This document shows positions 8,839 through 56,005 of a DNA stretch of 64,000 nucleotides, piece by piece. The notes under the pieces were generated by a model, which saw only the letters and a program-made list of their open reading frames with translations, was not told the DNA's origin and did no database searches. Numbering within the stretch: the first letter of the stretch is position 1; the number at the start of each line of letters is the position of its first letter. This DNA comes from Gracilariopsis chorda. Its lineage: Eukaryota > Rhodophyta > Florideophyceae > Gracilariales > Gracilariaceae. The stretch spans positions 248,001 through 312,000 of the forward strand of contig NBIV01000007.1 of assembly GCA_003194525.1 (NCBI GenBank), read 5' to 3'. The translations under genes were made by a program, and so were the position numbers.

Positions 8839-8914
8839 GATGTACTCAAGCAGTCTCCGTTTCCTAAGATGCTGATTTCATCGCTTACTTGCACACTCTA
8901 GGTGCCTCGTTGCA

Positions 8915-12494: not shown

Positions 12495-15312
12495 CAAGTG
12501 GAAACGGGCTTCGGCCTTGGGCGGCGCTGCGCGCTGCGCGCCGCGTTCTTTTTGTAGCTTTGTGTATTTAGTAGCGTTCGGAGGCTCTCCGAGCACTTTG
12601 CTCGCTTGCGCTCGCAATAGCACTCGTAGAACCACGGGGTGCCGCGGCACTGAGAGTAGGTAAAGTGATAGGGGTTTGTGTTTAGGTGCCCAAATTGACT
12701 GCAGTGCCAGACAATGATGAGAAAGCGCGACGCGTTCCTTTGTGTAACTGGATGGCAATGCAGTCATTATGGGAGTGCGAGCCAGTAAGCAGGAAGCTTT
12801 GCTGCTGCTGCTGCTGCTGAAGTTTTTAAAAGGTAGGGAGGGGTTGCGCCAAATGGGCGTTTTGCAAGCGCAAATGGGGGCGTGCCAAGCGAATTTGTGG
12901 CGCAACGCCTCCCGTCAGTCAACAACACCCCCCTCATACCTGTGTAAATCATTAAGATAGGTGGTGTTGAGAGAAGTGGAAACGGCCTTCGGCCGTGGAC
13001 GGCGCTGCGCGCCGCATTCTTTTTGTAGCTTTGTGTATTTAGTAGCGTTCGGAGGCTCTCCGAGCACTTTGCTCGCTTGCACTCGCAATAGCGCTCGTAT
13101 AACCACGGGGTGCCGCGGCACTGAGAGTAGGTAAAGTGATAGGGGTTTGTGTTTAGGTGCCCAAATTGACTGCAGTGCCAGCCAATGATGAGAAAGCGTG
13201 ACACGTTGCTTTGTGTAACTGGATGGCACTGCAGTCATTATGGGAGTGCGAGCCAGTAAGCAGGAAGCTTTGCTGCTCCTGCTGCTGCTGAAGTTTTTAA
13301 ACGGTAGGGAGGCGTTGCGCCAAATGGATTATTTGCATGGGCAAATGGGGCATGCAAGACAAATTTGTGGCGCAACGCCTCCATTCAATCAAGAACGCCC
13401 CCCTCATACAGGAACAAATACTTTAAATGGAGAGACAAGTGGAAACGGCCTTCTGCCGTGGGCAGCGCTGCGCGCCGCGTTGTCTATGTAGCTTTGTGTA
13501 TTTAGTAGCGTTTGGAGGCTCTCCGAGAACTTTGCTCGCTTGCGCTTGCAATAGCAGTCGTAGAACCACGGGGCGCTGCGGCGCCTAGAGTAGGTGGAGC
13601 CGTAGGGATTTCTGTTTAGGTGTCTAAATTGACTGCAGTGCCAGCCATTGATGAGAAAGCGCGACACGTTGCTTTTTGTATCTAGATGGCACTGCAGTCA
13701 TTATGGGAGTGCCAGCCAGTAAGCAGGAAGCTCTGCTGCTGCTGCTGAAGTTTTTTAAAGGTAGGGAGGCGTTGCGCCAAATGGGCGTTTTGCATGAGCA
13801 AACGGGGGCATGCAAAGCGAATTTGTGGCGCAATGCCTCCCGTCAGTCAACAACACCCCTCTCATACATGTGTAAATCATTAAGAGTGGGGGTGTTGAGA
13901 CAAGTAGAAACGGCCTTCGGCCATTGGCGGCGCTGCGCGCCGCGTTGGTTTCGTAGCTTTGTGTATTTAGTAGCGTTCGGAGGCTCTCCGAGCACTTTAC
14001 TCGCTTGCGCTCGCAATAGCGCTTGTAAAAACATGAGGCGCCGCCGCGCCGAGAGTATGTGGAGCCGTAGGTGTTTGTGTTCAGGTGCTAAAATTGACTG
14101 CAGTGCCAGCCAATGATGAGAAAGCGTAACACGTTGCTTTTTGTATCTAGATGGCACTGCAGTAATTATGGGAGTGCCAGCCAGTAAGCAGGGAGCTTTG
14201 CTGCTGCTGCTGCTGCTGAAGTTTTTTAAAGGTAGGGAGGCGTTGCACCAAATGGGCGTTTTGCAAGCGCAAACGGGGGCATGCAAAGCGAATTTGTGGC
14301 GCAACGCCTCCCGTCAGTCAACAACACCCCTCTCATACATGTGTAAATCATTAAGACTGGGGGTGTTGAGACAAGTAGAAACGGAATTCGGCCGTGAACG
14401 GCGCTGCGGGCCGCGTTGGTTTTGTAGCTTTGTGTATTTAGTAGCGTTCGGAGGCTCTCCGAGCACTTTACTAGCTTGCGCTCGCAATAGCGCTTGTAAA
14501 ACCACGGGGCGCCGCCGCGCCGAGAGTATGTGGAGCCGTAGGAGTTTGTCTTCAGGTGCTAAAATTGACTGCAGTGCCAGCCAATGATGAGAAAGCGTAA
14601 CACGTTGCTTTTTGTATCTAGATGGCACTGCAGTAATTATGGGAGTGCCAGCCAGTAAGCAGGAAGCTTTGCTGCTGCTGCTGCTGCTGAATGTTTTAAA
14701 TGGTAGGGAGGCGTTGCGCCAAATGGGCGTTTTGCATGTGCAAACGGGGGCGTGCAAAGCGAATTTGTGAAGCAACGCCTCCCGTCAGTCAACAACACCC
14801 CCCTCATACATGTGTAAATCATTTAAAGTGGTGGTGTTGAGACAAGTGGAAACGGCCTTCGGCCGTGGGCGGCGCTGCGCGCCGCGTTCTTTTTGTAGCT
14901 TTGTGTATTTAGTAGCGTTCGGAGGCTCTCCGAGCACTTTACTCGCTTGCGCTCGCAATAGCGCTCGTATAACCACGGGGTGCCGCGGCACTGATAGTAG
15001 GTAAAGTGATAGGGGTTTGTGTTTAGGTGCCCAAATTGATTGCACTGCCAGCCAATGATGAGAAAGCGCGACACGTTGCTTTGTGTAACTGGATGGCACT
15101 GCAGTCATTATGGGAGTGCCAGCCAGTAAGCAGGAAGCTTTGCTGCTGCTGCTGCTGCTGAATTTTTTAAATGGTAGGGAGGCGTTGCGCCAAATTGGCG
15201 TTTTGCATGCGCAAACGGGGGCGTGCAAAGCGAATTTGTGGCGCAACGCCTCCCGTCAGTCAACAACACCCCCCTCATACATGTGTAAATCATTAAGAGT
15301 GGGGTGTTGAGA
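12495..15312 (-). repeat. Short non-autonomous Helitron units 1-6 (long-form monomers)
   Basis: Six tandem units: 12495-12972, 12973-13435, 13436-13900, 13901-14371, 14372-14842, 14843-15312 (463-478 bp). In element orientation each has TCTC at the 5' end and an inverted repeat GGAGGCGTTGCGCCA/TGGCGCAACGCCTCC with a loop of about 46 bp. A (CAG)n tract follows, then a middle region not found in the autonomous element, a run of GC-rich palindromes and the terminal hairpin before CTTG. These units keep a segment of about 34 bp (after the GGCGC palindrome) that most later units lack. They are the most diverged group: hairpins in units 1 and 5 are damaged. Unit 2 has the alternative 5' end. Confidence 0.85.
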
Positions 15313-15336
15313 CAAGAGGAAGCGGCCTTCGGCCGC
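15313..15336 (-). other. Helitron 3' terminal hairpin and CTTG end (element A)
   Basis: Plus-strand caag (15313-15316), a 5-nt spacer, then gcggccttcggccgc (15322-15336). On the element strand this is a 6-bp GC stem with a GAA loop, 5 nt, then CTTG. A short hairpin just before the end is the transposition terminator in canonical Helitrons, which however end in CTRR; this family ends in CTTG. The short units carry acggcc…ggccgt here, so the outer pair is A-T where the autonomous elements have G-C. Confidence 0.75.
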
Positions 15337-15459
15337 GGGCGGCGCTGCGGCTTGCGGTGGAGGAGTGATAAACAGCGGGGAGGAGAAAAGAGGGTAGAGA
15401 AAGCAAAAGCAGAAAAGCAAGTAGTTTAATTCAATGAAAGAAGAATGCAAGAGATATGA

Positions 15460-18400
15460 TTACGGTTGTGGAGGGATGCAGAACGGAATGGCTTCAGGCA
15501 GCACTGGGTTGGCGATGGGAACAGGCATGGGATGAATTGTGTGCGCATTCGCGGGTGTAAGCTGCGGATCATGCAGGAGCAGCACATGGTCGTTCCTTCG
15601 AACGCGTGACAATGCGACATACAACTGACCAGCGCAGAAGAAGTTGGATCGCACATCCACAACCAAGCCATCCGACGTCTTTCCCTGTCCTTTGTGAACG
15701 GTAGCTGCAAACGCGAGACGAATGGGAAACTGCCTTCGAATCATGCGAATATCTGCGAAAGAAAACTCGAAGTCGATACGATGCAGGAGCTGTCGTTCGA
15801 GCACCTGTCTGTTCTCATCGAATCGAGCCACCTGCATCGTAAATTCATCGACACGCACGACTACGAACAGCTTTCCGTTGATCACAGCCGGATGCAGCAC
15901 CTTCCGAATGACCATAACTGGCACACCGATCTTCAAGTCCAAGTTATGAGGCGGTATTCCAGTACGCGCATACTGATATGCAAACTCGGGGACGATAGAA
16001 CTGGCAAGTCAGACTCTGGGTTCTGTCCACGAACAGGTTGCATGGTTGTCGCTGACGGAAGAGTGAAGCGTTCACCAGGAAACAGATCTAGCGCTGCCGC
16101 ATTATGTTCGTCGACCAACTGATTTGTGGAGGCAATGAGCATTTTGCTGAGATCCACATCCTCCTTGCATCGTGTTGTGAGCCACTTCCACACGAATTGG
16201 TAGGCGGTTTGCATGCCACCGGTAGATCTGAGTGGTAGTGGAGCGTTGTTGGATATTTTGTTTCGTGCAATGGAACGTAACAGCGACGCAAATGCCGGAT
16301 CATCCGCTTGGCGTACTTGTTCCGTGAGGTACAGCACTTGAACCGAGCACAATGTCCACAGATCACTCTTCCACGGCAATTCGTTGAGAATGTTTGTGTA
16401 CACTCGTCTCACATTACCACTTGGCTCGGCCTCCATGTATACCTGCGGCACCACTGGAAGCAGCTGGGAGTAGTCGCCGGATAGAACGATGGTCAAGCCC
16501 CCAAAGGGAGGTGGGTTTTCCATTCCACTGCAGCAAAGATATTTGAGCAACGCATTCATGAGTTCGAAGAGCTTTCTTGAGAGCATGGACGCTTCATCCA
16601 AGACGAGCAGTTGTATTTCGCGTAGCAGTTCTGCACGTTGAGATCGGGGACCGTACTTTGACAAAGTGGCTGTAGTGTTGCTTGTGCTGTCCCTATCAGC
16701 TACACCCAGTCAGAGAAGGCTATGTAAAGTGCGGCCACCTTCGTACAACGAAGCTGCAATGCCTGTTGTAGCAGTCATTTCGGCGAGCATTCCTTCCGAC
16801 TCAACGATATCACGAAGGAGGTTGAGCACGTATGTCTTTCCGGTTCCTGCGGATCCTTGCACAAAGAACACGTTTCCAGGAGTGCTTGTTCGCTCGTGCA
16901 GCGCCTGTCGTTGTTGCAATGCGGTAATGACGGTGTTAATGACTTGTCTTTGGCGAGGTTTTAAGGTGGCGTACCTTGACTGCAAAGTTGACGAATTTCG
17001 CACCACTCGTGCGTCTCGAGTTGTTGTAGCTCGACTCGCCTCAGTCAATGCTGTATGATCCTGCTGTAGGTGTTGGAAGAAGAAGCTGTGATCGAGAAGC
17101 AGTCGTCCTCCGTGCCGGTCTGAGATCTCCACCACACGTCGATACATTTCTTGCTTTCGTTGCTGCTCATCTCCTCTATGTATGTCGCTACATAGTGCCT
17201 CCCAGTTTTCGACGGCCATTTTTTCTGGGTCTGTGCCTTGTTGGTATAGTGTAACAACCAGACGTCGTAGCTCTGAGGGCGTGCTGTATATCTGCACTGC
17301 TTCTTGGAATGCAATATCAAACTCGGATCCGTCCGCGAGCAGTCCGCTTACAATTGCAGTTTCACGATACGTTCCATACTGCTGTCCGTTGAAATTCCTT
17401 GCGTCTTCATAAGAGCTCGAGCCGTGATTCATGAGCAGCAAGCGCAGAGCAAAGAGCTCAATGTCCGACGGTGAAACACCTCTGATCCTTGCGACGCACT
17501 GCTCGTCGTCCGTGCGCTCTACCACGTACATGGGCGGATCGCAGTCGTCTGTGGGCACCTGAGTGCTGTCTCCGTCGTATTGGTTAAGCACGCGGGCTGG
17601 AAGCGTGCGATACAATCGCACTTTTTCAAAGTACGAAAGGTAGTCGAGGTTCGCGTATGCTTCGGGCCTTGCAAAGTATCTCTGCATTGTAGACGGCTGT
17701 GATGCAGAAGAGAGCTGGTTTGGACCTCTCAGCAGAAATGTGCGCTCTCCTTCCAAGTGAATGGCCAGTCGCTCTACTTTTGGTACGATGTGAACATGTC
17801 CAAACTCGAAAAGTCTCCAAGCTGCATTGACGGCGCCCACCACACGCGCTCGCATTTATGCACGAATGGCGTTCTGCACCTGTGGCTCTTGTTGCTTCTC
17901 GTTGTGTGTGCCTTTCTCATTAGCACCACTCACGTTGAGCACCACCTCCTGAGCTTTGGGCTGCTTAAACGCGTACTTCATCAGATAAGCCACTGCGCCC
18001 CCTCCTTGCGTGCGCTCTACGTTGATATGAGAGGGGTACTTCTTGGTCAGAGTTGGGTTGTACGGCACTATCCTGAGGTCATGTTGCCTTCTTCTGCGGT
18101 AGACCACGCGATTCGTGCCTTCTTCAATGTACGTCTCCGGCACAATCATGTTGCCGTCGTATCCAAACTTGCAACGCCCAGCGCGATTCCGGCAATAGGT
18201 GGAGTGGCGGTGCCTGTGCATGGAACGAATGAGAGCACGCAACGCGTCGTCTTCACCGGGAAGAGGAAGTTCTGCACGAATCAGCTCGTCGATCACATCA
18301 ACGTCTTCAATCACGCCTTCTTCGAGCCACACGAGTATGTGGTGATGAGGCACATTGCGCTCTTGAAACTCGAACTTTGATGCAAGCCCCAGGCACTTCA

Positions 18401-20879
18401 ATCCAAAGATCTGCTCCGAGTTCTTCTCCAAATCCTTCATGAAGTCGTTTGCGTACTGGTTGTACACCCTTGCAATCAGATCCGGTCGGTCAAACGGTCG
18501 AGGGCGGTTACTTTGTGCCGTAAATGCGCCACGATTGGTGGTGTCCATCCCAAGACGCTGGATGTCCTCTCGCCAGATGTTCATGGTGATTGTAATGAAC
18601 AGAGAAGGCGGTCCTCTCCGCGCCACGATCGCCTGTACATCCATGCGCTTGTTCTTCCAGTATGCTGCTGAGTTGACGTAGTCATCGGGCAGAAAGATGC
18701 GTCCCATTAGCACGAGCTGGGATTGTGGCACGTGACCGGTTTGCTGTTGTGCTTGCTGCATTTCTTGCTCTTGTACAATGCGTGCCCGTTGTTCTCTTTC
18801 GAGGAAACGGAGTCGCATGTCCTCAATGTTTGTGTGGGTGCGGAGCATCCACATCTGCATCAACGGTCCACTGTCCAGAAGGATGTTGTCTGAGTACAGT
18901 CGTCTCTTCGCGTTCTCAGCCCAGGTGAGCTTTCGGAGCTTCCAATCTTTGAAGCTGAGACCTGAGATTTGCTGTGTTGAGTTCTTTGCCTCCAGAAACA
19001 CGCCAATGTCAAACGGTTCGTGCTGATCACCGTACGGGTAGAGCAGAGGGAAAGTGCCTTTCTCTGCCATTTTGGATGCCGGTTTTAGAAGGCGGTACCG
19101 CACTTGCGCATTGTTTGCGCCATCTACAGTCGCCCCTGCTCCAGCAGCAACAGCACTCGTCACTGCAGCGTGCTCTTCGGCTACGGTTCCTTCTACCAAG
19201 CGCGGTACTTGAGACTCCACTCGGTACAGGCCAGTCGGATCCACGACGAGCGTTCTCATCATGGTTGGCCCCCCACCAGGAGCATCTTTAGGGAGAGGCC
19301 CAGCACCTACGTGAGGAGCACTGACTGTGGCACTTCGGGTTCCTTCGTAACCACGTACGACTACTCTCTCTTCTGCTGCCTGCATGCTGATATCGACGGC
19401 GGTATCTGCATTTTGTTTTTGTTGTTGTTGCGTGCTAAGCATGGATCGGTACCGCTCACGCACCACGTCTGGCTTGGGCTGGATCACATCGTACAACTTG
19501 GGCACGATATCTCGTACGTTGATATCTTGAATGAACGCACGCAAATTGGCACGCGCATAGTGAGAGGGATCCAAGTTAGGGGGACCAGTACCCCACAGAA
19601 AGCTGTAGCGCGTGTTGTTCTGGTTCTGCGTGGGCAGAGCGAGAGCTGCGTTTCCCTCAAGTCTCAGAAAGGAGGGACCGCCTCCCGTCACATACGACAT
19701 GTCCATGAACGCTTGCGTCGTAGCGAAGAGCGTATTCAAGTTGAGAAAATGGCTGTGAAAGGCTCTCAGACTATAAAGACTGCGAACCAACTCGTTGTTA
19801 TGCCTTCTGCGGAACGTGACGCCCCACCCTGACATTCTTTTCATTCCACAGCACACTCCATTGGTCTCTTTGCCAAGCAAAACGCATCCGCAGTACTTGC
19901 AGCTATGAATTCTCAATGTCCAGTCCCGGTACGGGCAGGAGGAGAGCGTGTGTGCGTGCTCGCCGCATCTTCCGCATCGCCTTTGACCTGCAGTGGGAAG
20001 CATATCAAACTCCGGCACGCTTGCACGGATGGCCGGATCATTCCTCGCCTGAGCTGCCACGGAATCCCACGCATAGTACACGCGATAGAGTCCTCGATCA
20101 GGACGCCCAGCACAGTGCATGACCGTCGTATCAAGCTGTTGCTGTGGCTGATGCTGCGGCTGGTGTGAGGGAGCCGGTGTGATCTCATCCGCTTCCACCT
20201 CCATCGGAATGGACATCTGTTGTTCTTCCTGTTCCGCTTGTGGCAACGCAGGCTGCGGCGGCGGGTTTGAGGGAGCCGGGGTGATCTCATCGTCTTCCAC
20301 TTCCATCGGGACTGGCATCTGTTCTTCCTCTTGTTCAGCTTGTGGCAGAGCAGGCTGCTGTGATGGCGGTGGCTGTGAGGGAGCAGGGATGATCTCATCC
20401 TCTTCCACTTCCATCGCAATAGGCATCTGTTCTGCAGGCATTGGTGGGAGAGGGGGAGGCATCGGAGGCGGTGGAATGTGACTTGGAAGGCCTCTCACAA
20501 ACTCCAGAAATACAGGAAGTGGGCACGATGTCGGTAGATCTGTGGCAGGGGACTCACTGGCTCCAGCGGCGCTTGTGCTAACTGCTGCTGCAACCGAAGT
20601 AGGTGCAGGAGTAATTTCGTCTTCTTCAACCACTGGAACAATAGGTCCTTGAACGTGTGCTCCGCTCTCATTTACTCCCAACTCATCTGGAGCTGGAAGA
20701 GCTGGTGCTCTTCGGGGTCTTCCAGCTCCTGCCCGTGCTCCACCACTGCCGACGCGACGACCACCAGCGTTTTGCCTTGCACCGCCTGCGTTCAACCTGG
20801 CACCTCCAAAATTGTCTCTGGCACCTCCTGAGTTAGATCGGACGCCACCAGAGTTTAGACGTCGCCCTCCTCTCGTCAT
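15460..20879 (-). pseudogene. Helitron A Rep-helicase (broken at three sites)
   Basis: The rolling-circle transposase. From the ATG at 20,879: residues 4-57 are repeats of R-x-N-x-G-G; residues 85-240 hold acidic repeats around EDEITPAPS; C302-x2-C305-x4-H310-x4-C315 is a zinc knuckle, followed by a Cys cluster at 327-344. A Helitron-like N domain follows, then the HUH endonuclease with PHHHILVWL (His 845-847) and the two-tyrosine motif YLMKY (Tyr 965, Tyr 969). The helicase half has Walker A GSAGTGKT (16,856-16,833), VLDEASM, GDYSQLLPVV and, near the C-terminus, [11 protein letters not shown]. Lesions, judged against B-F: TAA at 17,858-17,856 (Tyr codon in B), TGA at 16,712-16,710 (Gly codon in B) and a missing base near 16,005. 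The Rep active site itself is intact. Confidence 0.88.
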
Positions 20880-21127
20880 TTCAATTTACCAGAAAAAGGA
20901 AAAAAAACATTTCTATGTTTTTGTAAACCGTTAAAAACTTTGCCAGAGTTCCAGAATAATTTCCAATATACCACAAAGTTGAAAGTGAAAAACTGGTTGC
21001 AGTTTGTTGCTTTGCACCCACCGGGCCTAGTCGCATGCAGCAATTAAAAAAACAAATTGCTGCAAGGCTTATATTTACCCGATGCAGTCGTGCGCAGCAC
21101 AGGGACTCTCGACACACTCCTGTTGGA

Positions 21128-21331
21128 TTATGACGGGCGGAGTGCGCCCAGCCGGTTTTCAAGCCGTTTGATGTTTAACCCGCGTCCGGTTGTAAGGATT
21201 GGTCTGCCTTTACTCACACACCGAAGTGTGCTTTCCGGCCCCAAGAGGTACGACACGGCGGCCGCCCTGGACCCTGCACAGCAAGCTGGTATTAGGTCCG
21301 GTAAACCCTCAGACTTCCTGATCGCCGTCAA
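21128..21331 (-). CDS. Conserved 67-codon leader ORF of the Helitron (uncertain)
   Basis: Begins MTAIRKSEGLPDLIPACCAG and ends shortly after ILTTGRGLNIKRLENRL. The same open frame occurs in B (32,618-32,415) and C (49,409-49,206) with only a few changes, and its first 49 codons form the start of the fused frame in D and F. It precedes the Rep-helicase gene on the same strand. No known domain. It may be an upstream ORF, a first exon, or chance; the copies are too similar for conservation alone to prove coding. Confidence 0.3.
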   Translation of the reverse strand: MTAIRKSEGLPDLIPACCAGSRAAAVSYLLGPESTLRCVSKGRPILTTGRGLNIKRLENRLGALRPS

Positions 21332-21546
21332 ACGACCAGTATACCACAGAGGAGCACCTGACGTTTCCCAGATCCGTGGTACTTAGTGGGTTACTCTTGT
21401 GGCGACCTGCACACGAGCTCGGCCTTGCCTAGGTCCCAGGCCAGCAAACAATGCCCAAAGTAGGAAAAGGTTACGACACTGCGCTATTGACCAAGCCTGA
21501 ATGGGATGCAAAATAGTGGTTAGGGTCAGCAAGCGAGATGCATTTG

Positions 21547-21627
21547 GCACTGCGCCAGTGCAGTATATACGTCTGTTGCAGGCATGTCTGCAATGACACT
21601 TCAGTATACACTGCACTGGCGCAGTGC
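21547..21627. promoter_or_regulatory. Stem-loop in the Helitron leader
   Basis: Left arm 21,547-21,569 (gcactgcgccagtgcagtat…) pairs with right arm 21,605-21,627, 23 bp with one mismatch, around a 35-nt loop. The loop itself holds a smaller stem, ttgcag/ctgcaa. The right arm overlaps the repeated cacgtg-containing element. All full-length copies and D-F have it. It could form a cruciform or act in transcription or replication control; this is inference. Confidence 0.5.
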
Positions 21628-21976
21628 AATTTGCCACGTGTCGGAATGCACTGCACTGGCGCAGTGCGATTTGCCACGTGTCGGAATGAACAGGCGGGGT
21701 TTTGCTGCTGAGTGGCTGGCACAACAATATGATTGTATTGCAAGCCATTCAGCAGCCATTGCACAGTCAACTTGCAGCAGCAGCAGCTAATTAACTGAAC
21801 GCTTTGCTGCTGCTGCTGCTGCTGAATTTTTTTAATGGTAGGGAGGCGTTGCGCCAAATGGGCGATTTGCATGCGCAAACGGGGGCGTGCAAGAGGATTT
21901 TGTGGCGCAACGCCTCCATTCAATCAACAACACCCCCCTCATACATGTGTAAATCATTAAGAGTGGGGTGTTGAGA

Positions 21977-22327
21977 TGCAATTTGCCACGTGTCGAAATG
22001 CACTGCACTGGCGCAGTGCAATTTGCCACGTGTCTGAATCAACAGGCGGGTTTTGCTGCTGAGTGGCTGGCACAACAATTTGATTGTATTGCAAGCCATT
22101 CAGCAGCCATTGCACAGTCAACTTGCAGCAGCAGCAGCTAATTAACCGAACGCTTTGCTGCTGCTGCTGCTGCTGAATTTTTTAAATGGTAGGGAGGCGT
22201 TGCCCCAAATGGGCGATTTGAATGCGCAAACGGGGGCGTGCAAGAGGATTTTGTGGCGCAACGCCTCCATTCAATCAACAACACCCCCCTCATACATGTG
22301 TAAATCATTAAGAGTGGGGTGTTGGGA
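21977..22327 (-). mobile_element. Truncated Helitron fragment: 5' module plus start of leader
   Basis: In element orientation it starts with TCCCAACACC (22,327), has the usual inverted repeat, CAG tract and first part of the leader (two cacgtg repeats), then stops abruptly at …CAAATTGCA and is followed by the 5' TCTC of element A. The hairpin and CTTG end are missing. The break in the leader is not at an A|T pair, so A did not simply insert there; it looks like an aborted copy or a recombination product. Confidence 0.65.
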
Positions 22328-32700: not shown

Positions 32701-33225
32701 CGAGCTCGGCCTTGCCTAGGTACCAGGCCAGCAAACAGTGCCCAAAGTAGCAAAAGGTTACGACACTGCGCTATTGGCCAAGCCTGAATGGGATGGAAAA
32801 TAGTGGTTAGGGTCAGCAAGCGAGATGCATTTGGCACTGCGCCAGTGCAGTATATACGTCTGTTGCAGGCAAGTCTGCAATGAAAGTTCAGTATACACTG
32901 CACTGGCGCAGTGCAATTTGCCACGTGTTGGAATGAACAGGCGGGGTTTTGCTGCTGAGTGGCTTGCACTACATTTTGATTGTATTGCAAGCCATTCAGC
33001 AGCCATTGCACAGTCAACATGCAGCAGCAGCAGCTAATTAACTGAACGCTTTGCTGCTGCTGCTGCTGCTGAAGTTTTTAAGTGGTAGGGAGGCGTTGCG
33101 CCAAATGGGGCGTTTTGCATGGGCAAACGGGGGCGTGCAAGACGATTTTGTGGCGCAACGCCTCCCGTCAGTCAACAACACCCCCCTCATACATGTGTAA
33201 ATCATTAAGAGTGGGGGTGTTGAGA
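26705..33225 (-). mobile_element. Helitron B, near-full-length element (6.52 kb)
   Basis: Same layout as A: 5' TCTCAACACC at 33,225, CAG tract, leader, Rep-helicase gene 32,170-26,852, and hairpin gcggcc/ggccgc with CTTG at 26,708-26,705. Together with adjoining short units it is nearly identical to the C region: positions 26,097 to about 33,800 correspond to 42,786 to about 50,600. Confidence 0.87.
26852..32170 (-). pseudogene. Helitron B Rep-helicase (frameshifts and nonsense)
   Basis: Same domain order as copy A. Lesions: a 1-nt deletion near 30,231 in the N domain (before the Rep core); a 4-nt duplication of gtcg at 28,577-28,584 between Rep and helicase; and TAA at 28,138-28,136 just after Walker A, where A has Tyr. 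The helicase C-terminal half (27,994-26,852) is open and keeps DEASM, GDYSELLPVV and [11 protein letters not shown]. One of the acidic 34-residue repeats in the N-terminal region is missing relative to A and C, which accounts for the 102-bp length difference from C. Confidence 0.85.
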
Positions 33226-41056: not shown

Positions 41057-42954
41057 CAAGAGGAAGCGGCCTTCGGCCGCGGGCGGCGCTGCGCGCCGCG
41101 GTGGAGGAGTGATAAACAGCGGTGAGGAAAAAAGAGGGTGGAGAAAGCAAAAGCAGAAAAGCAAGTAGTTTAATTCAATGAAAAAAGAATGCAAGAGATA
41201 TGATTACGGTTGTGGAGGGATGCAGAACTGAATGGCTTCAGGCAGCACTGGGTTGGCGATGGGAACAGGCATGGGATGAATTGTGTGCGCATTCGAGGGT
41301 GTAAGCTGCGGATCATGCAGGAGCAGCACATGGTCGTTCCTTCGAACGCGCGACAATGCGACATACAACTGACCAGCGCAGAAGAAGTTGGATCGCACAT
41401 CCACAACCAAGCCATTCAACGTCTTTCCCTGTCCTTTGTGAACGGTAGCTGCAAACGCGAGACGGATGGGAAACTGCCTTCGAATCATGCGAATATCTGC
41501 GAAAGAAAACTCGAAGTCGATACGATGCAGGAGCTGTCGTTCGAGCACCTGTCTGTTCTCGTCGAATCGAGCCACCTGCATCGTAAATTGATCGACACGC
41601 ACGACTACGAACAGCTTTCCGTTGACCACAGCGGGATGCAGCACGTTCCGAATGACCATAACTGGCACACCAATCTTCAAGTCCAAGTTATGAGGCGGTA
41701 CTACAGTAGGCGCATACTGATATGCAAACTCGGGGACGATAGAACTGGCAAAGTCAGACTCTGGGTTCTGTCCACGAACAGGTTGCACGGTTGTCGCTGA
41801 CGGAAGAGTGAAGCGCTCACCAGGAAACAGATCTAGCGCTGCCGCATTATGTTCGTCGACCAACTGATTTGTGGAGGCAATGAGCATTTTGCTGAGATCC
41901 ACATCCTCCTTGCGTCGTGTTGTGAGCCACTTCCACAGGAATTGGTAGGCGGTTTGCATGCCACCGGTAGATCTGAGTGGTAGTGGAGCGTTGTTGGATA
42001 TTGTGTTTCGTGCAATGGAACGTAACAGCGACGCAAATGCCGGATCATCCGCTTGGCGTACTTGTTCCGTGAGGTACAGCACTTGAACCGAGCACAATGT
42101 CCACAGATCACTCTTCCACGGCAATTTGTTGAGAATGTTTGTGTACACTCGTCTCACATTTCCACTTGGCTCGGCCTCCATGTACACCTGCGGCACCACT
42201 GGAAGCAGTCCGGTTGTAAGGATTGGTCTGCCTTTACTCACACACCGAAGTGTGCTTTCCGGCCCCAAGAGGTACGACACGGCGGCCGCCCCGGACCCTG
42301 CACAGCAAGCTGGTATTAGGTGCGGTAAACCCTCTGACTTCCTGATCGCCGTCAAACGACCAGTATACCACAGAGGAGCACCTGACTTTTCCCAGATCCG
42401 TGGTACTTAGTGGGTTACTCTTGTGGCGACCTGCACACGAGCTCGGCCTTGCCTACGTCCCAGGCCAGCAAACAGTGCCCAAAGTAGCAAACGGTTACGA
42501 CACTGCGCTATTGGCCAAGCCTGAATGGGATGCAAAAAAGTGGTTAGGGTCAGCAAGCGAGATGCATTGGGCACTGCGCCAGTGCAGTATATACGTCTGT
42601 TGCAGGCAAGTCTGCAATGAAACTTCAGTATACACTGCACTGGCGCAGTGCAATTTGCCACGTGTCGGAATGAACAGGCGGGGTTTTGCTGCTGAGTGGC
42701 TGGCACAACAATTTGATTGTATTGCAAGCCATTCAGCAGCCATTGCACAGTCAACTTGCAGCAGCAGCAGCTAATTAACTGAACGCTTTGCTGCTGCTGC
42801 TGCTGCTGAATTTTTTAAATGGCAGGGAGGCGTTGCGCCAAATGGGCGATTTGGATGGGCAAACGGGGGCGTGGAAGAGGATTTTATGGCGCAACGCCTC
42901 CATTCAATCAAGAACACCCCCCTCATAGAGGAACAAATCATTATAATGGAGAGA
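41057..42954 (-). mobile_element. Helitron deletion derivative F (1.90 kb)
   Basis: Same deletion as D and E, join at 42,208/42,209. It has one cacgtg leader repeat rather than two. Its 5' end is the TCTCTCC type. The sequence to the right of the CTG tract (from 42,786) matches the short unit at 26,097 rather than the leaders of D or E, so the left breakpoint of the B/C duplication lies at this CTG tract. Confidence 0.83.
41204..42355 (-). CDS. Leader-helicase fused frame, 383 codons (element F)
   Basis: Open across its whole length, with the same fusion point after codon 49 as in D. It differs from D in the segment after NPESD, where it carries FASSIVPEF (A-like) in place of VTNTFVPEF, so D and F are not simple copies of each other. 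It lacks Rep, Walker A and the DEASM box. Two of three derivatives keep the frame open, which is suggestive but not proof of use. Confidence 0.4.
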   Translation of the reverse strand: MTAIRKSEGLPHLIPACCAGSGAAAVSYLLGPESTLRCVSKGRPILTTGLLPVVPQVYMEAEPSGNVRRVYTNILNKLPWKSDLWTLCSVQVLYLTEQVRQADDPAFASLLRSIARNTISNNAPLPLRSTGGMQTAYQFLWKWLTTRRKEDVDLSKMLIASTNQLVDEHNAAALDLFPGERFTLPSATTVQPVRGQNPESDFASSIVPEFAYQYAPTVVPPHNLDLKIGVPVMVIRNVLHPAVVNGKLFVVVRVDQFTMQVARFDENRQVLERQLLHRIDFEFSFADIRMIRRQFPIRLAFAATVHKGQGKTLNGLVVDVRSNFFCAGQLYVALSRVRRNDHVLLLHDPQLTPSNAHTIHPMPVPIANPVLPEAIQFCIPPQP

Positions 42955-43393: not shown

Positions 43394-46300
43394 CAAGAGG
43401 AAGCGGCCTTCGGCCGCGGGCGGCGCTGCGCGCCGCGGTGGAGGAGTGATAAACAGCGGTGAGGAAAAAAGAGGGTGGAGAAAGCAAAAGCAGAAAAGCA
43501 AGTAGTTTAATTCAATGAAAGAAGAATGCAAGAGATATGATTACGGTTGTGGAGGGATGCAGAACTGAATAGCTTCAGGCAGCACTGGGTTCGCGATGGG
43601 AACAGGCATGGGATGAATTGTGTGCGCATTCGCGGGTGTAAGCTGCGGATCATGCAGGAGCAGCACATGGTCGTTCCTTCGAACGCGCGACAATGCGACA
43701 TACAGCTGACCTGCGCAGAAGAAGTTGGATCGTACATTCACAACCAAGCCATCCAAGGTTTTTCCCTGTCCTTTGTGAACTGCAGTTGCAAACGCAAGAC
43801 GAATAGGGAGCTGCCTTCGAATCATGCGAATGTCTGCGAAAGAAAACTCGAAGTCGATACGATGCAGGAGCTGTCGTTCCAGTACCTGTCCGTTCTCGTC
43901 GAATCGAGCCACCTGCATCGTAAAGTGATCGACACGCACGACTACGAACAGCTTTCCGTTGACCACAGCCGGATGCAACACGTTCCGAATGACCATAACT
44001 GGCACACCAATCTTCAAATCCAAGTTATGAGGAGGTACACCAGTAGGTGCATACTGATACGCAAACTCGGGAACAAAGGTATTGGTGACGTCGGGCTCTG
44101 AGTTTGGTACACCGTCAAGTTGTACCGTCGTAGCTGACGGAAGAGTGAAGCGTTCACCAGGAAACAGATCCAGCGCTGCCGCATTGTGTTCATCGACCAA
44201 CTGATTTGTGGAGGCAATGAGCATTTTGCTGAGATCCACATCCTCCTTGCGTCGTGTTGTGAGCCACTTCCACAGGAATTGGTAGGCGGTTTGCATGCCA
44301 CCGGTAGATCTGAGTGGTAGCGGGGCGTTGTTGGATATTGCGTTTCGTGCAATGGAACGTAACAGCGACGCAAATGCCGGATCATCGGCTTGGCGTACTT
44401 GTTCCGTGAGGTACAGCACTTGAACCGAGCACAATGTCCACAGATCACTCTTCCACGGCAATTCGTTGAGAATGTTTGTGTACACTCGTCTCACATTACC
44501 ACTTGGCTCGGCCTCCATGTACACCTGCGGCACCACTGGAAGCAGCTCGGAGTAGTCGCCGGATAGAACGATGGTCAAGCCCCCAAACGGAGGCGGGTTT
44601 TCCATTCCACTGCAGCGAAGATCTTTGAGCAACGCATCCATGAGTTCGAAGAGCTTTCGTGAGAGCATGGACGCTTCATCCAAGACGAGCAGTTGTATTT
44701 CACGTAGCAGTTTTGCACGTTGAGATCGGGGACCGTACTTTGACAGAGTGGCTGTAGTGCTGCTTGTGCTGTCCCTATCAGCTACACCCAGTCCGAGCAG
44801 GCTATGTAAAGTGCGGCCACCTTCTTACAACGAAGCTGCAATTCCTGTTGTAGCAGTCATTTCAGCGAGCATTCCTTCCGACTCAACGATATCACGAAGG
44901 AGGTTGAGCACGTATGTCTTCCCGGTTCCTGCGTATCCTTGCACAAAGAACACGTTTCCAGGAGTGCTTTTTCGCCCCTGCAGCGCCTGTCTTTGTTGCA
45001 ATGCGGCAATGACGGTGTCAATGACTTGTCTTTGGCGAGGTTTTAAGGTGGCGTACCTTTACTGCAAAGTTGACGAATTTCGCACCACTCGTGCGTCTCG
45101 AGTTGTTGCAGCTCGATTTGCCTCAGTCAATGCTGTATGATCCTGCTGTAGGTGCTGGGAGAAGAAGCTGTGATCGCGAAGCAGTCGTCCTCCGTGCCGG
45201 TCTGAGATTTCCACCACACGTCGATACATTTCTTGCTTTCGTTGCTGCTCATCTCCTGTATGTATGTCGGTCGCTACATAGTGCCTCCCAGTTTTCGACG
45301 GCCATTTTTTCTGGGTCTGCGCCTTGTTGGTATAGTGTGACAACCAGACGTCGTAGCTCTGAGGACGTGCTGTATATCTGCACTGCTTCTTGGAATGCAA
45401 TATCAAACTCGGATCCGTCCGCGAGCAGTCCGCTTACAATCGCAGTTTCACGATACGTTCCATACTGCTGTCCGTTGAAAGTCCTTTCGTCTTCATAAGA
45501 GCTCGAGCCGTGATTCATGAGCAGCAAGCGCAGAGCAAAGAGCTCAATGGCCGACGGTGAAACACCTCTGATCCTTGCGACGCACTGCTCGTCGTCCGTG
45601 AGCTCTACCACGTACATGGGCGGATCGCAGTCGTCTGTGGGCACCTGAGTGCTGTCTCCGTCGTATTGGTTAAGCACGCGGGCAGTAAGCGTGCGATACA
45701 ATCGAACTTTTTCAAAGTACGAAAGGTAGTCGAGGTTCGCGTATGCTTCGGGCCTTGCAAAGTATCTCTCCAGTGTAGACGGCTGTGATGCAGAAGAGAG
45801 CTGGTTTGGACCTCTCAGCAGAAATGTGCGCTCTCCTTCCAAGTGAATGGCCAGTCGCTCTACTTTTGGTACGATGTGAACATGTCGAAACTCGAAAAGT
45901 CTCCAAGCTGCATTGACAGCGCCCACCACACGTGCTCGCATGTATGCACGAATGTCGTTCTGCACCTGCGGCTCTTGTTGCTGCTCGTTGTGTGTGCCTT
46001 TCTCATTAGCACCACTCACGTTGAGCACCACCTCCTGAGCTTTGGGCTGCTTAAACGCGTACCTCATCAGATAAGCCACTGCGCCCCCTCCTTGGGTGCG
46101 CTCTACGTTGATATGAGAGCGGTAATTCTTGGTCAGAGTTGGGTTGTACGGCACTATCTTGAGGTCATGTTGCCTTCTTCTGCGGTAGACCACGCGATTC
46201 GTGCCTTCTTCAATGTACGTCTCCGGCACAATCATGTTTCGGTCGTATCCAAACTTGCAACGCCCAGCGCGATTCCGGCAATAGGTGGAGTGGCGGTGCC

Positions 46301-49300
46301 TGTGCATGGAACGAATGAGGGCACGAAACGCGTCGTCTTCACCGGGAAGAGGAATTTCTGCACGAATCAGCTCGTCGATCACATCAAAGTCTTCAATCAC
46401 GCCTCCTTCGAGCCACACGAGCATGTGGTGATGAGGCACATTGCACTCCTGAAACTCGAACTTTGATGCAAGCCCCAGGCACTTCAATCCGAAGATGTGC
46501 TCCGAGTTCTTCTCCAAGTCCTTCATGAAGTCGTTTGCGTACTGGTTGTACACCCTTGCAATCAGATCAGGTCGGTCAAACGGTCGAGGGCGGTTACTTT
46601 GTGCCGTAAATGCGCCACGATTGGTGGTGTCCATCCCAAGACGCTGGATGTCCATTCGCCAGATGTTCATGGTGATTGTAATGAACAGAGAAGGCAGTCC
46701 TCTCCGCGCCACGATCGCCTGTACATCCATGCGCTTGTTCTTCCAGTATGCTGCTGAGTTGACCGAGTCATCAGGCAGAAAGATGCGTCCCATTAGCACG
46801 AACTGGGATTGTGGCACGTGACCGGTTTTCTGTTGTGCTTGCTGCATTTCTTGCTCTTGTACAATGCGTGCCCGTTGTTCTCTTTCCAGGAAACGCAGTC
46901 GCATGTCCTCAATGTTTGTGTGGTGCGAAGCATCCACATCTGCATCAACGGTCCACTGTTCAGAAGGATGTTGTCTGAGTACAGTCGTCTCTTCGCGTTC
47001 TCAGTCCAGGTGAGCTTTCGGAGCTTCCACTCGTTGACGCTGAGACCTGAGATTTGCTGTGTTGAATTCTTTGCCTCCAGAAACACGCCAATGTCAAACG
47101 GTTCGTGCTGATCTCCGTACGGGTAGAGAAGAGGAAAAGTGCCTTTCTCTGCCATTTTGGATGCCGGTTTTAGAAGGCGGTACCGCACTTGCGCATTGTT
47201 TGCGGCATCTACAGTCGCCCCGGCTTCAGCAGCAGCAGCAGTAGTCATTGCAGCGTGCTCTTCTGTTACGGTTCCTTCTACCAAGCGCGGTACTTGAGAC
47301 TCCACTCGGTACAGGCCAGTCGGATCCACGACGAGCGTTCTCATCATGGTTGGCCCCCCACCAGGAGCATCTTCAGGGAGAGGCCCAGCACCTACGTGAG
47401 GAGCACTGACTGTGGCACTTCGGGTTCCTTCGTAACCACGCACAACTACTCCCTCTTCTGCTGCCTTCATGCTGATATCGACGGCGGTATCTGCATTTTG
47501 TTGTTGTTGTTGTGTGCTAAGCATGGATCGGTACCGCTCACGCACCACGTCTGGCTTGGGCTGGATCACATCGTACAACTTGGGCACGATGTCTCGTACG
47601 TTGATGTCTTGAATGAACGCACGCAAATTGGCACGCGCATAGTGAGAGGGATCCAAGGAAGGTGGACCAGTACCCCACAGAAAGCTGTAGCGCGTGTTGT
47701 TCTGGTTCTGCGTGGGCAGAGCGAGAGCTGCGTTTCCCTCAAGTCTCAGAAAGGAGGGACCGCCTCCCGTCACATACGACATGTCCATGAACGCTTGCGT
47801 CGTAGCGAAGAGCGTATTAAAGTTGAGAAAATGGCTGTGGAAGGCTATCAGACTATAAAGACTGCGAACCAACTCGTTGCTATGCCTTCTGCGGAACGTG
47901 ACGCCCCACCCTGACATTCTTTTCATTCCACAGCACACTCCATTGGTCTCTTTGCCAAGCAAAACGCATCCGCAGTACTTGCAGCTATGAATTCTCAATG
48001 TCCAGTCCCGGTACGGGCAGGAGGAGAGCGTGTGTGCGTGCTCGCCGCATCTTCCGCATCGCCTTTGACCTGCAGTGGGAAGCGTCTCAAACTCCGGCAC
48101 GCTTGCACGGATGGCCGGATCATTCCTCGCCTGAGCTGCCACGGAATCCCACGCATAGTACACGCGATAGAGTCCTCGATCAGGACGCCCAGCACAGTGC
48201 ATGACCGTCGTATCAAGCTGTTGCTGTGGCTGATGCTGCCGCTGGTGTGAGGGAGCCGGTGTGATCTCATCCGCTTCCACCTCCATCGGAATGGACATCT
48301 GTTGTTCTTCCTGTTCCGATTGTGGCAACGCAGGCTGCGGCGGCGGGTGTGAGGGAGCCGGGGTGATCTCATCCTCTTCCACTTCCATCGGGACTGGCAT
48401 CTGTTCTTCCTCTTGTTCAGCTTGTGGCAAAGCAGGCTGCTGTGATGGCGGTGGCTGTGAGGGAGCAGGGATGATCTCATCCTCTTCCAATTCCATCGCA
48501 ATAGGCATCTGTTCTGCAGGCATCGGTGGGAGAGGGGGAGGCATCGGAGGCGGTGCAATGTGACTTGGAAGGCCTCTCACAAACTCCAGAAATCCAGGAA
48601 TTGGGCACGAAGTTGGTAGATCTGTGGCAGCGGACCCACTGGCTCCAGCGCCGCTTGTGCTAACTGCTGCTGCAACCGAAGTAGGTGCAGGAGTAATTTC
48701 GTCTTCTTCAACCACTGGAACAATAGGTCCTTGAACGTGTGCTCCGCTCTCATGTACTTCCAACTCATCTGGAGCTGGAGGAGCTGGTTCTCTTCGGGGT
48801 CTTCCAGCTCCTGCCCGTGCTCCACCACTGCCAACGCGACGACCACCAGCGTTTTGCCTTGAACCGCCTGCGTTCAACCTGGCACCTCCAGAATTATCTC
48901 TGGCACCTCCCGAGTTAGATCGGATGCCACCAGAGTTCAGACGTCGCCCTCCTCTCGTCATTTCAATTTACCAAAGAAAAGAAAAGAACAATTCTATGTT
49001 TTTAAACCGTTAAAAAATTTGCCAGAGTTCCAGAATAATTCCCAATAAAACACAAAGTTGAAAGTGAAAAAACTGGTTGCAGTTTGTTGCGTTGCACCCA
49101 CCGGGCCTAGTCGCATGCAGCAATTAAAAACAAATTGCTGCAAGGCTTATATTTACCCGATGCAGTCGTGCGCAGCACAGGGACTCTCGACACACTCCTG
49201 TTGGATTATGACGGGTGGGGTGTGCCCAGCCGGTTTTCAAGCCGTTTGATGTTTAACCCGCGTCCGGTTGTAAGGATTGGTCTGCCTTTACTCACACACC

Positions 49301-50016
49301 GAAGTGTGCTTTCCGGCCCCAAGAGGTACGACACGGCGGCCGCCCCGGACCCTGCACAGCAAGCTGGTATTAGGTCCGGTAAACCCTCAGACTTCCTGAT
49401 CGCCGTCAAACGACCAGTATACCACAGAGGAGCACCTGACTTTTCCCAGATCCGTGGTACTTAGTGGGTTACTGTTGTGGCGACCTGCACACGAGCTCGG
49501 CCTTGCCTAGGTACCAGGCCAGCAAACAGTGCCCAAAGTAGCAAAAGGTTACGACACTGCGCTATTGGCCAAGCCTGAATGGGATGGAAAATAGTGGTTA
49601 GGGTCAGCAAGCGAGATGCATTTGGCACTGCGCCAGTGCAGTATATACGTCTGTTGCAGGCAAGTCTGCAATGAAAGTTCAGTATACACTGCACTGGCGC
49701 AGTGCAATTTGCCACGTGTTGGAATGAACAGGCGGGGTTTTGCTGCTGAGTGGCTTGCACTACATTTTGATTGTATTGCAAGCCATTCAGCAGCCATTGC
49801 ACAGTCAACATGCAGCAGCAGCAGCTAATTAACTGAACGCTTTGCTGCTGCTGCTGCTGCTGAAGTTTTTAAGTGGTAGGGAGGCGTTGCGCCAAATGGG
49901 GCGTTTTGCATGGGCAAACGGGGGCGTGCAAGACGATTTTGTGGCGCAACGCCTCCCGTCAGTCAACAACACCCCCCTCATACATGTGTAAATCATTAAG
50001 AGTGGGGGTGTTGAGA
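43394..50016 (-). mobile_element. Helitron C, near-full-length element (6.62 kb)
   Basis: Same layout as A and B. It shares B's leader variants and coding lesions base for base, and its neighbours on both sides match B's neighbours, so it is a duplicated segment rather than a separate transposition. Confidence 0.87.
43541..48961 (-). pseudogene. Helitron C Rep-helicase (B's lesions plus its own)
   Basis: Shares with B the 1-nt deletion (near 46,920), the gtcg duplication (45,266-45,273) and the TAA at 44,827-44,825. Private changes are TAA at 45,061-45,059 (a Ser codon in A and B) and a Walker A substitution, GYAGTGKT for GSAGTGKT, near 44,935. It also has Arg to Cys just before PHHH in the Rep core. 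It retains the extra acidic repeat missing from B. Not functional as an enzyme. Confidence 0.85.
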
Positions 50017-51320
50017 CAAGTGGAAACGGCCTTCGGCCGTGGGCGGCGCTGCGCGCCGCGTTGTTTTTGTAGCTTTGTGTAATTTGTAGCGTTCGGAGGC
50101 TCTCCGAGCACTTTGCTCGCTTGCGCTCGCAATAGCGCTCGTAGAACCACGGGGCGCCGCGGCGCCTAGGTACCTAAATTGACTGCAGTGCCAGCCAATG
50201 ATGAGAAAGCGTGACAAGTTGCTTTGTGTAACTGGGTGGCACTGCAGTCATTATGGGAGTGCGAGCCAGTAAGCAGGAAGCTTTGCTGCGGCTGCTGCTG
50301 CTGAATTTTTTAAATGGTAGGGAGGCGTTGCGCCAAATGGGCGATTTGGATGGGCAAACGGGGGCGTGGAAGAGGATTTTATGGCGCAACGCCTCCATTC
50401 AATCAAGAACCCCCCCCTCATAGAGGAACAAATCATTATAATGGAGAGAAAAGTGGAAACGGCCTTCGGCCGTGGGGGGCGCTGCGCGTCGCGTTTTGTT
50501 TGTAGCTTTGTGTATTTCGTGGCGTTCGGAGGCTCTCCGAGCACTTTGCTCGCTTGCGCTCGCAATAGCGCTCGTAGAACCACGGGGCGCCGCGGCGCCT
50601 AGGTGTCTAAATTGACTGCAGTGCCAGCCAATGATGAGAAAGCGCGACACGTTGCTTTGTGTAACTGGCTGGCACTGCAGTCATTATGGGAGTGCCAGCC
50701 AGTAAGCAGGAAGCTTTGCTGCGGCTGCTGCTGCTGAATTTTTTAAATGGTAGGGAGGCGTTGCGCCAAATGGGCGATTTGGATGGGCAAACGGGGGCGT
50801 GCAAGAGGATTTTATGGCGCAACGCCTCCATTCAATCAAGAACCCCCCCTCATAGAGGAACAAATCATTATAATGGAGAGAAAAGTGGAAACGGCCTTCG
50901 GCCGTGGGGGGCGCTGCGCGTCGCGTTTTGTTTGTAGCTTTGTGTATTTCGTGGCGTTCGGAGGCTCTCCGAGCACTTTGCTCGCTTGCGCTCGCAATAG
51001 CGCTCGTAGAACCACGGGGCGCCGCGGCGCCTAGGTGTCTAAATTGACTGCAGTGCCAGCCAATGATGAGAAAGCGCGACACGTTGCTTTGTGTAACTGG
51101 CTGGCACTGCAGTCATTATGGGAGTGCCAGCCAGTAAGCTGGAAGCTTTGCTGCGGCTGCTGCTGCTGAATTTTTTAAATGGTAGGGAGGCGTTGCGCCA
51201 AATGGCAGTTTTGCATGCGCGTAGAGGGGCATACAGAGCGGTTAATTGGCGCACCGCCTCCTATCAATCAACAACACCCCCCTCATACATGTGTAAATCA
51301 TTAAGAGTGGGGTGTTGAGA
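50017..51320 (-). repeat. Short Helitron units 27-29, right end of the block
   Basis: Units 50017-50449, 50450-50881 and 50882-51320. All three share the ctgcgg-interrupted CTG run. The last unit ends in the TCTCAACACC type, which defines the outer 5' edge. The adjoining flank reads tggagaga on the plus strand, which resembles the other 5' end type, so the edge could lie 8 bp further right; either placement leaves an A before TC. Confidence 0.82.
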
Positions 51321-55836: not shown

Positions 55837-56005
55837 ACGCGCACACGTGGCGCGCGCATTACACTCGCGCGCGCCGCTGCGCCCAACGGAACGTCGCGCG
55901 CCACGTGCACGTGCGCGCGCATCGATCGGTTGTTATAAACGGCGCCACTATCGCACGCATCGTACGTACGCACACACATTCGCACATTCCCCCAACAACA
56001 TCAAC

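What the first reader, a model, noticed from the sequence alone, without database searches (positions are those of the whole stretch)
12495..51320. A 38.8-kb Helitron-only satellite flush between one A and one T
Autonomous-type, deletion-derived and short non-autonomous units alternate head to tail with no spacer: CTTG of one touches TCTC of the next. The outer edges lie between A and T, the Helitron target pair. Helitron tandems and Helitron-derived satellites are known, but a mixed block of full-length, deleted and short members filling what looks like one insertion site is unusual. It may record a rolling-circle concatemer or repeated insertion at the element end, later amplified by unequal exchange.
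Basis: partly seen in the sequence, partly recalled or inferred. Interest (0 to 1): 0.88.

Follow-up and report, generated by a model that had tools for sequence, protein, structure and literature searches.

The report
Helitrons stacked by self-targeting
In a red seaweed, one family of jumping genes lands next to a short sequence motif that it also carries at its own front end, which would make copies land on each other and build long head-to-tail blocks; this suggests how such a transposon can turn itself into a satellite and can be tested directly.

Summary
Window 12,495-51,320 (minus strand) is 35 Helitron units with no spacer: 3 long (6.5-7.0 kb, Rep + Pif1 helicase), 3 deletion-type (1.9 kb) and 29 short ones (430-478 bp). 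The block lies between host A and T, and two diverged empty paralogues of the flanks run straight across that point. The genome is Gracilariopsis chorda. The block is not unique: 323 of 438 exact 3' ends genome-wide abut another copy's TCTC.

The new part is the target. Host DNA 3' of insertions carries an oriented box, TAANNATT, usually 8-11 nt from the A|T. In flanks not used to define it, 18 of 42 are exact and 36 of 42 match at least 5 of 6 letters; AT-matched controls average 0.41 and 6.57. The element's own 5' end carries the same box, mostly at 11 or 17 nt (136 of 147 units). An A-flanked resident is therefore itself a target, and insertion there gives a flush CTTG|TCTC junction. Flush neighbours differ by a median 8.1%, against 2.3% to their nearest relative elsewhere, which speaks against single-circle concatemers. 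Local duplication adds to some arrays. Reads were not checked.

The parts
12495..51320 (-). Block of 35 flush Helitron units, 5' end at 51,320 and 3' end at 12,495
   Evidence: lengths sum to 38,826; 34 junctions CTTG|TCTC or one-base variants
15313..22327 (-). Long unit (7,015 bp) with Rep and Pif1-helicase reading frames; an in-frame stop separates the Rep frame from the next
   Evidence: ORFs; Helitron_like_N (E 5.5e-28) and PIF1; Helraiser 7lcc (E 4.5e-25)
26705..33225 (-). Long unit (6,521 bp), frames split
43394..50016 (-). Long unit (6,623 bp), frames split; near-copy of 26,705-33,225
   Evidence: 98-99% over the surrounding 7.9 kb
34526..36468 (-). Medium deletion-type unit, 1,943 bp
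   Evidence: 97% to 37,808-39,745
37808..39745 (-). Medium deletion-type unit, 1,938 bp
   Evidence: 95% to 41,057-42,954
41057..42954 (-). Medium deletion-derived unit, 1,898 bp: positions 1-1152 of the 6,623-bp unit joined to 5869-6605 (plus-strand positions)
25833..26265 (-). Representative short non-autonomous unit, 433 bp (29 short units, 430-478 bp, in the block)
25842..25856 (-). 3' subterminal hairpin, 6-bp stem, 9 nt before the end; its outer pair is A-T in the short unit and G-C in a long unit
25859..25875 (-). Second 3' hairpin, 7-bp stem
51296..51303 (-). TAATGATT box in the 5' end of the outermost unit, 17 nt from the A|T
12479..12486 (-). TAACGATT box in host DNA, 8 nt beyond the 3' edge of the block (target-site box)
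12495..15312 (-). Six 3'-most short units (463-478 bp), the most diverged of the block, read as the oldest
   Evidence: nearest relative elsewhere 5.9-9.1% away; the other short units of the block 0-3.9%
26266..34092 (-). Segment repeated at 42,955-50,881 (98-99%): local duplication

Best explanation
This is a Helitron family (5' TC, 3' CTTG, Rep-helicase) in the red alga Gracilariopsis chorda. It inserts between A and T when an oriented TAANNATT box lies about 8-11 nt (up to about 15) downstream. The element's own 5' end carries that box at 11 nt (type TCTCTCC) or 17 nt (type TCTCAAC). After one insertion, host A plus the element's first T is again an A|T followed by a box, so the next copy inserts flush at the 5' edge of the resident and regenerates the same target. 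Repetition builds a head-to-tail array of whatever copies are active: autonomous, deleted or short. Some stretches then duplicate locally, probably by unequal exchange. Shown here: flush arrays, A|T edges, empty paralogues, the box in host targets, the box in the 5' end, and mixed ancestry of neighbours. Inferred: that one transposase reads the box both to start transposition at the element's 5' end and to choose the target, and that growth is mainly at the 5' edge.
For: 3' ends are followed by T: of 438 exact 3' ends, 323 continue TCTC, 72 T then not-C, 3 non-T, and by subtraction 40 TC then not-TC. The 15 distinct outer 5' flanks that I picked by eye from the listing (junctions and internal starts left out) all end in A. 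Box: written down from the first flanks seen; in flanks from later fetches 18 of 42 have exact TAANNATT at +6..+24 and 36 of 42 match >=5 of 6, against AT-matched means of 0.41 (max 3) and 6.57 (max 14) in 1000 draws; the exact windows and the 5-of-6 cut were set after those flanks had been listed. Over a 44-flank set the forward box occurs in 22 and the reverse in 1, over the 51-flank set 26 and 3; control windows further downstream have 0 and 0; 15 outer 5' flanks have 0. The element 5' end has the exact box in 136 of 147 short units, with TG, GT or GC at the two free positions. Two host repeats seem each to have been hit three times at different A|T positions near the same box (L062, L063, L066; L050, L068, L074). 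Five insertions lie inverted, 10 nt (four) or 6 nt (one) beyond the box of a resident 5' end, as a nearly palindromic box would allow. Of 94 flush short pairs, 67 differ by >5%; no pair is shared between loci; 81 of 127 scored units have their nearest relative at another locus. In this block the 3'-most units are the most diverged.
Against: The age gradient is strong only with the window array included (S 244 of 714 pairs, 0 of 5000 permutations); without C7 and C289 it is not significant (S 29 of 230, 639 of 5000). The type TCTCAAC box sits at 17 nt, outside the commonest host range of 8-11. Six of 42 independent host flanks do not reach 5 of 6 letters. Three own-family insertions (L046, L047, L103) lie directly at the box, with no spacing. 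Of the two empty paralogues, C39 keeps a near-box (AAACGATT) but C35 reads AAAAGATC there. Internal junctions offer G|T, so strict A|T growth at the edge is not proved. The type TCTCTCC 5' end is preceded by A at 56 places and by C or T at 34; at least six of the 34 (three in this block, C38, C59, C163) are array junctions with a changed 3' end, the rest were not read. 42 of 127 units have their nearest relative in the same array, so local duplication contributes. With about 0.3% of host A|T sites carrying an exact box, host targets must greatly outnumber resident 5' ends, so residents must be much better targets, or nearer, or arrays must be amplified afterwards; which of these was not measured.
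Confidence: 0.72

Rival explanations
1. Rolling-circle concatemer: a circular intermediate is copied several times round and the multimer is inserted in one event.
For: Helraiser circles carry exact RTS-LTS junctions like these (passages of PMC5876387, and PMC4778049). Five of 94 flush pairs differ by <1%.
Against: A concatemer of one circle gives near-identical neighbours; the observed median is 8.1%, with long, deleted and short units mixed. It does not explain the box in host targets or the inverted insertions.
Confidence: 0.1
2. Unequal exchange alone: one dimer arose by chance and all arrays grew by recombination.
For: 7.9-kb duplication in the window; alternating two-unit repeat at C289, its middle units 0-0.5% from their nearest in the array; C135 two identical pairs.
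Against: Nearest relative lies at another locus for 81 of 127 units (42 in the same array) and no flush pair is shared between loci, so most array diversity came from elsewhere. 323 junctions, the first 100 listed lying on 41 contigs by my count, need a founding process of their own.
Confidence: 0.12
3. Multi-unit transposition: read-through of the first CTTG moves strings of units together.
For: C38 and C699, and C690 and C40, share unit order.
Against: C699 (12 kb) and C690 (24 kb) are short contigs that look like duplicates or haplotypes and were dropped; among the rest no flush pair is shared at <1.5% on both units.
Confidence: 0.08
4. Assembly artefact: collapsed or scrambled repeats.
For: Raw reads were not available; the unit strings of C38 and C699 agree, which may be uncollapsed haplotypes.
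Against: Units are diverged enough to be told apart, the edges read are A|T, the block lies inside a 683,597-bp contig, and the same junction recurs on many contigs.
Confidence: 0.04
5. The box only reflects a taste for AT-rich, easily melted DNA, as reported for Helraiser.
For: Helraiser prefers AT-rich DNA within ~20 bp, most on the 3' side (section 10 of PMC4778049). Host flanks here are 67% AT over 30 nt against 53% at host A|T sites of the window.
Against: AT-matched controls give far fewer boxes; the box is oriented and positioned; the element's 5' end keeps it in 136 of 147 units.
Confidence: 0.08

Closest known systems
Two adjacent maize Helitrons at r1 (Du et al. 2008, PMC2267711; passages read)
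   Same: Flush CTAG|TC junction (G/T); different elements side by side; the authors already state that the second copy could have used the A of the host and the T of the resident's 5' end.
   Different: One pair only; no target motif beyond A|T in the passages; no genome-wide arrays.
Tandem Helitrons in bat and plant genomes, incl. plant centromeres (as cited in PMC2267711, PMC5876387, PMC5148889; originals not read)
   Same: Perfect head-to-tail junctions, tandem arrays.
   Different: There linked to rolling-circle replication or circular intermediates; here neighbours are mostly unlike each other and the 5' end carries the target box.
Helraiser / Helibat1 (PMC4778049 section 10 and passages; PMC5876387 passages)
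   Same: RepHel protein (7lcc), 5' TC, 3' hairpin, A|T insertion, AT-rich bias on the 3' side.
   Different: CTAG end; AT-richness reported rather than a defined box in the section read; no arrays by self-targeting described in what I read.
HELPO2 of Pleurotus ostreatus (PMC4289320, passages)
   Same: 3' end CTTG, A|T insertion, hairpin, RepHel.
   Different: No tandem arrays mentioned (0 hits for 'tandem' in the main text).
FoHelis of Fusarium (PMC5148889, passages)
   Same: Self-insertion, multiple 5' ends, and a three-copy tandem in Metarhizium acridum for which 5'-end insertion or rolling circle are both considered.
   Different: Non-canonical termini; TNAT|A target for FoHeli1/2; no shared target and 5'-end box described in the passages.
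IS200/IS605 and IS91 HUH transposons (recalled; IS608 site specificity mentioned in PMC5876387)
   Same: Works like them in that the nuclease may read target and element end by related sequence (recalled).
   Different: Prokaryotic, different proteins; an analogy, not a membership.

Membership tests
Helitron (canonical type) | Rep (HUH, two Tyr) plus SF1 helicase of Pif1 type | tested here: met
   Pfam Helitron_like_N 5.5e-28 and PIF1; Helraiser 7lcc residues 371-739, E 4.5e-25; HHH and YLMKY read by eye in the frames. The frames are split in this window; elsewhere open frames of up to 1,809 aa hold the whole 1,009-aa match without a stop.
Helitron (canonical type) | 5' TC | tested here: met
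   34 of 35 units begin TCTC, one TCCC
Helitron (canonical type) | 3' CTRR | tested here: not met
   CTTG in 31 of 35 units, CTTT in 3, CTTC in 1. HELPO2 shares CTTG, so it is filed as a CTTG variant by its RepHel protein and other features, not as a strict CTRR Helitron.
Helitron (canonical type) | Hairpin about 10 nt before the 3' end | tested here: met
   6-bp stem 9 nt from the end plus a second 7-bp stem in both units folded, one short and one long
Helitron (canonical type) | Insertion between A and T without target duplication | tested here: met
   435 of 438 exact 3' ends followed by T; 15 of 15 outer 5' flanks picked end in A; empty paralogues join at A|T
Helitron (canonical type) | Circular or rolling-circle intermediate | not testable with these tools
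   needs DNA from living alga
Helentron / Helitron2 | T|T insertion, endonuclease domain (recalled) | tested here: not met
   A|T insertion; no endonuclease among Pfam hits of three frames of the 7.0-kb unit, one of the 6.5-kb and one of a 1.9-kb unit
Satellite DNA | Long head-to-tail array homogenised by exchange | tested here: inconclusive
   Head-to-tail yes; homogenisation only local (C289, C135, 7.9-kb duplication)

The most novel reading that the evidence does not exclude
The 5' end of this Helitron is a copy of its own target site: one protein-DNA contact (TAANNATT read at a distance from an A|T nick) serves both to start transposition at the element and to choose where it lands, so every copy is a renewable landing pad and the family builds its own mixed-unit satellites, with newest units at the 5' edge.
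Probability: 0.6. Interest if true: 0.75.

Novelty: new variant of a known kind. Interest (0 to 1): 0.62.

Why it matters
Flush Helitron tandems have been read in two ways: rolling-circle concatemers or consecutive insertion (both stated in PMC2267711). Here one genome offers hundreds of junctions. The composition of those read favours consecutive insertion, and a concrete sequence reason appears: the element's 5' end carries the same box as its host targets. It also gives a Helitron a defined, positioned target motif, where the passages read here report A|T and AT-richness or, for Fusarium, TNAT|A. If the box is what the transposase reads, it predicts insertion sites, explains how a transposon can start a satellite without exchange, and suggests how target choice could be studied in other Helitrons.

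Tried and rejected
Single-circle concatemer as main source: rejected on neighbour divergence. Strings of units moving together: no flush pair shared between loci once C699 and C690 were dropped. A general 5'-to-3' age gradient: strong in this block, not significant elsewhere, so used only as support for this block. The 8-nt TCTCTCCA at 51,321-51,328 as part of the element: considered because C38 shows the same (L010); left outside because the empty paralogues carry CCA|TTCA. In the 15-flank tally the window flank was taken with those 8 nt and the L010 flank without; both end in A. A motif upstream of the A: none seen beyond the A itself in 15 flanks. Protein search with the Rep frame (residues 250-1009) found no hit at E<=1e-3, so no relatives from other algae could be compared. 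A crude scan for single insertions gave 16 possible solo, 14 array and 27 undecided of 57 stretches; not used further. Rows dropped by hand: two host rows (L102 and one of L105) that look like the family; one search sorts 16 of 67 flanks as own-family by text pattern, and two rows left in as host (L099, L106) also look like decayed 5' ends. Flanks shorter than 34 nt were not used. Several stretches gave short flanks because my end coordinates were off.
Full report
What is there. The window lies at C7:248,001-312,000 of a 91.3-Mb, 1,081-contig genome. A host gene (GH47 mannosidase) matches, at 100% over 57% of its length, a Gracilariopsis chorda protein on a contig of 683,597 bp, the length of C7, so the organism is this red alga. 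Positions 12,495-51,320 are filled by units that read TCTC...CTTG on the minus strand, 29 junctions exact and 5 with one changed base, giving 35 units: 7,015, 6,521 and 6,623 bp; 1,943, 1,938 and 1,898 bp; and 29 of 430-478 bp. The 1,898-bp unit is the 6,623-bp unit with its middle removed. Frames in the long units match Helitron_like_N and PIF1 and the solved Helraiser protein. They are interrupted in this window; among 45 scored copies (of 2,650 candidates) in the genome some keep an open frame of up to 1,809 aa with no stop inside the match. Two hairpins precede the 3' end; the outer pair of one is A-T in the short unit and G-C in the long one folded.

The site. The block lies between A and T. 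Joined host flanks found no identical empty copy, but two diverged paralogues, C35 and C39, run across the junction as CCA|TTCA, so one host A|T was opened. Where the window has the box TAACGATT, C39 carries AAACGATT and C35 AAAAGATC.

How common it is. Of 438 exact 3' ends in the genome, 323 are followed by TCTC, 72 by T then not C, 3 by something other than T, and the remaining 40, by subtraction, by TC then not TC. Flush stacking is the usual state of the family. The exact-match count favours young copies.

The target box. Reading host DNA beyond the 3' edge of the first loci, I noticed TAANNATT at a near-constant distance and noted it down. I then fetched more edges. Among 67 distinct flanks of at least 34 nt, 16 are family DNA and 51 host by a text filter. 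In the 42 host flanks not used to form the idea, 18 have the exact box within +6..+24 and 36 match at least five of its six fixed letters; AT-matched host A|T sites give means of 0.41 and 6.57 with maxima 3 and 14 in 1000 draws. The window bounds and the five-of-six cut were chosen after those flanks had been listed. In the earlier 44-flank set the forward box is in 22, its reverse in 1; in the 51-flank set 26 and 3; windows further downstream have none. With 12 possible placements, 40 of 44 align at five or more letters; over a wider placement range 34 of 41 such placements are at offset 8-11. Three insertions into one host repeat (L062, L063, L066) and three into another (L050, L068, L074) use different A|T positions near the same box, so the box looks like the anchor. 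Against this, six of the 42 do not reach five letters, and three own-family insertions lie directly at the box (L046, L047, L103).

The element carries the box. Of 147 short units (two of them double readings of one unit, and some on contigs that look like duplicates), 136 have exact TAANNATT near the 5' end, mostly at 11 nt in the TCTCTCC type and 17 nt in the TCTCAAC type: TAATGATT 104, TAAGTATT 27, TAAGCATT 5; the other 11 are changed at other positions or have lost it. A resident preceded by A is therefore an A|T with a box downstream. Insertion there leaves CTTG directly against TCTC, as seen. Five own-family insertions are inverted and lie 10 nt (four) or 6 nt (one) beyond the box of a resident's 5' end, on the other strand. 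That is expected if a nearly palindromic box attracts insertion from both sides, and is not expected of concatemers.

Ancestry of neighbours. Among 131 short units kept of 147 (C699 and C690 dropped as collinear short contigs, and two double readings dropped), 94 flush pairs differ by a median 8.1%, 67 by more than 5% and 5 by less than 1%. The median distance to the nearest unit at another locus is 2.3%. The nearest relative is elsewhere for 81, in the same array for 42, tied for 4; no flush pair is shared between loci. The loci were chosen by similarity to one 433-bp unit, so this is a sample. Local duplication is real: 26,266-34,092 and 42,955-50,881 are 98-99% alike, and C289 alternates two units.

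Direction of growth. If A is needed, growth is at the 5' edge and the 3' unit is the founder. In this block the six 3'-most units are 5.9-9.1% from their nearest relative elsewhere, the other short units 0-3.9%. Over 23 arrays the trend is strong (0 of 5000 permutations), but without C7 and C289 it is not (639 of 5000). I treat this as consistent, not proved.

Known and new. Adjacent Helitrons with a G/T junction and the idea of insertion at host A plus resident T were published for one maize pair (PMC2267711, passages). Tandem arrays in bats and plants are cited in papers I read in passages. Helraiser shows AT-richness on the 3' side (section 10); wheat Xuan-Feng shows AT dinucleotides (passages); FoHeli1/2 use TNAT|A (passages); HELPO2 ends in CTTG (passages). 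In these passages, and in the listings of ten paper searches, I saw no positioned target box shared with the element's 5' end and no account of this family in G. chorda. The library holds open-licence papers only and most listed papers were not opened, so this is a limited statement. Gp. lemaneiformis has 1.71% RC/Helitron (PMC5970526, passage).

Limits. No raw reads, no second species, no experiment. That the transposase itself reads the box is inference. In checking this report against the calls I changed facts of detail (the open-frame length, the inverted spacing, rows against the box); none called for new odds.

Noticed in passing
window 51321-51328; L010 near 1492-1500: An extra TCTCTCCA stands directly outside the outermost 5' end here and at C38, preceded by A in both; perhaps a second 5' start, perhaps chance.
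   Followed up: partly
L045 (C289:78001-86000): 13 complete flush short units, alternating two types from the third on, the middle ones 0-0.5% from their nearest in the array: a two-unit higher-order repeat, the clearest local amplification.
   Followed up: partly
L009 1934-2069 (C52): A 136-bp unit made of 29 bp of 5' end and 107 bp of 3' end, flush between two 433-bp units: possibly a minimal mobile form.
   Followed up: no
L034, L048, L052, L065, L072: Head-to-head insertions just inside the 5' end of a resident copy, four of five at the same distance (10 nt) beyond the box.
   Followed up: yes
L046, L047, L103: Insertions directly at the TAATGATT box of a resident copy, with no spacing; they do not fit the usual 8-11 nt.
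   Followed up: no
window 20156-20433 and 48243-48515: 102-bp tandem repeat inside the long units' first reading frame; one repeat more or less matches the 102-bp length difference between two near-identical long units.
   Followed up: partly
window 21625-22324: 351-bp tandem duplication at the 5' part of the 7,015-bp unit, giving it two possible 5' starts.
   Followed up: no
window 6640-8877, minus: Broken retroelement-like frames (reverse transcriptase/RNase H look, by eye); no Pfam match.
   Followed up: no
window 55709-55847: Nine-base minisatellite CACACGCCG, about 16 copies, beside a MYB-like gene.
   Followed up: no
window 51872-53341, plus: One open frame joining a GNAT acetyltransferase and a glyoxalase domain.
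   Followed up: no
C271:73843-81957: Three pairs of TCTCTCC 5' ends, each pair 28 bp apart, suggesting doubled 5' ends like those reported in Fusarium.
   Followed up: no
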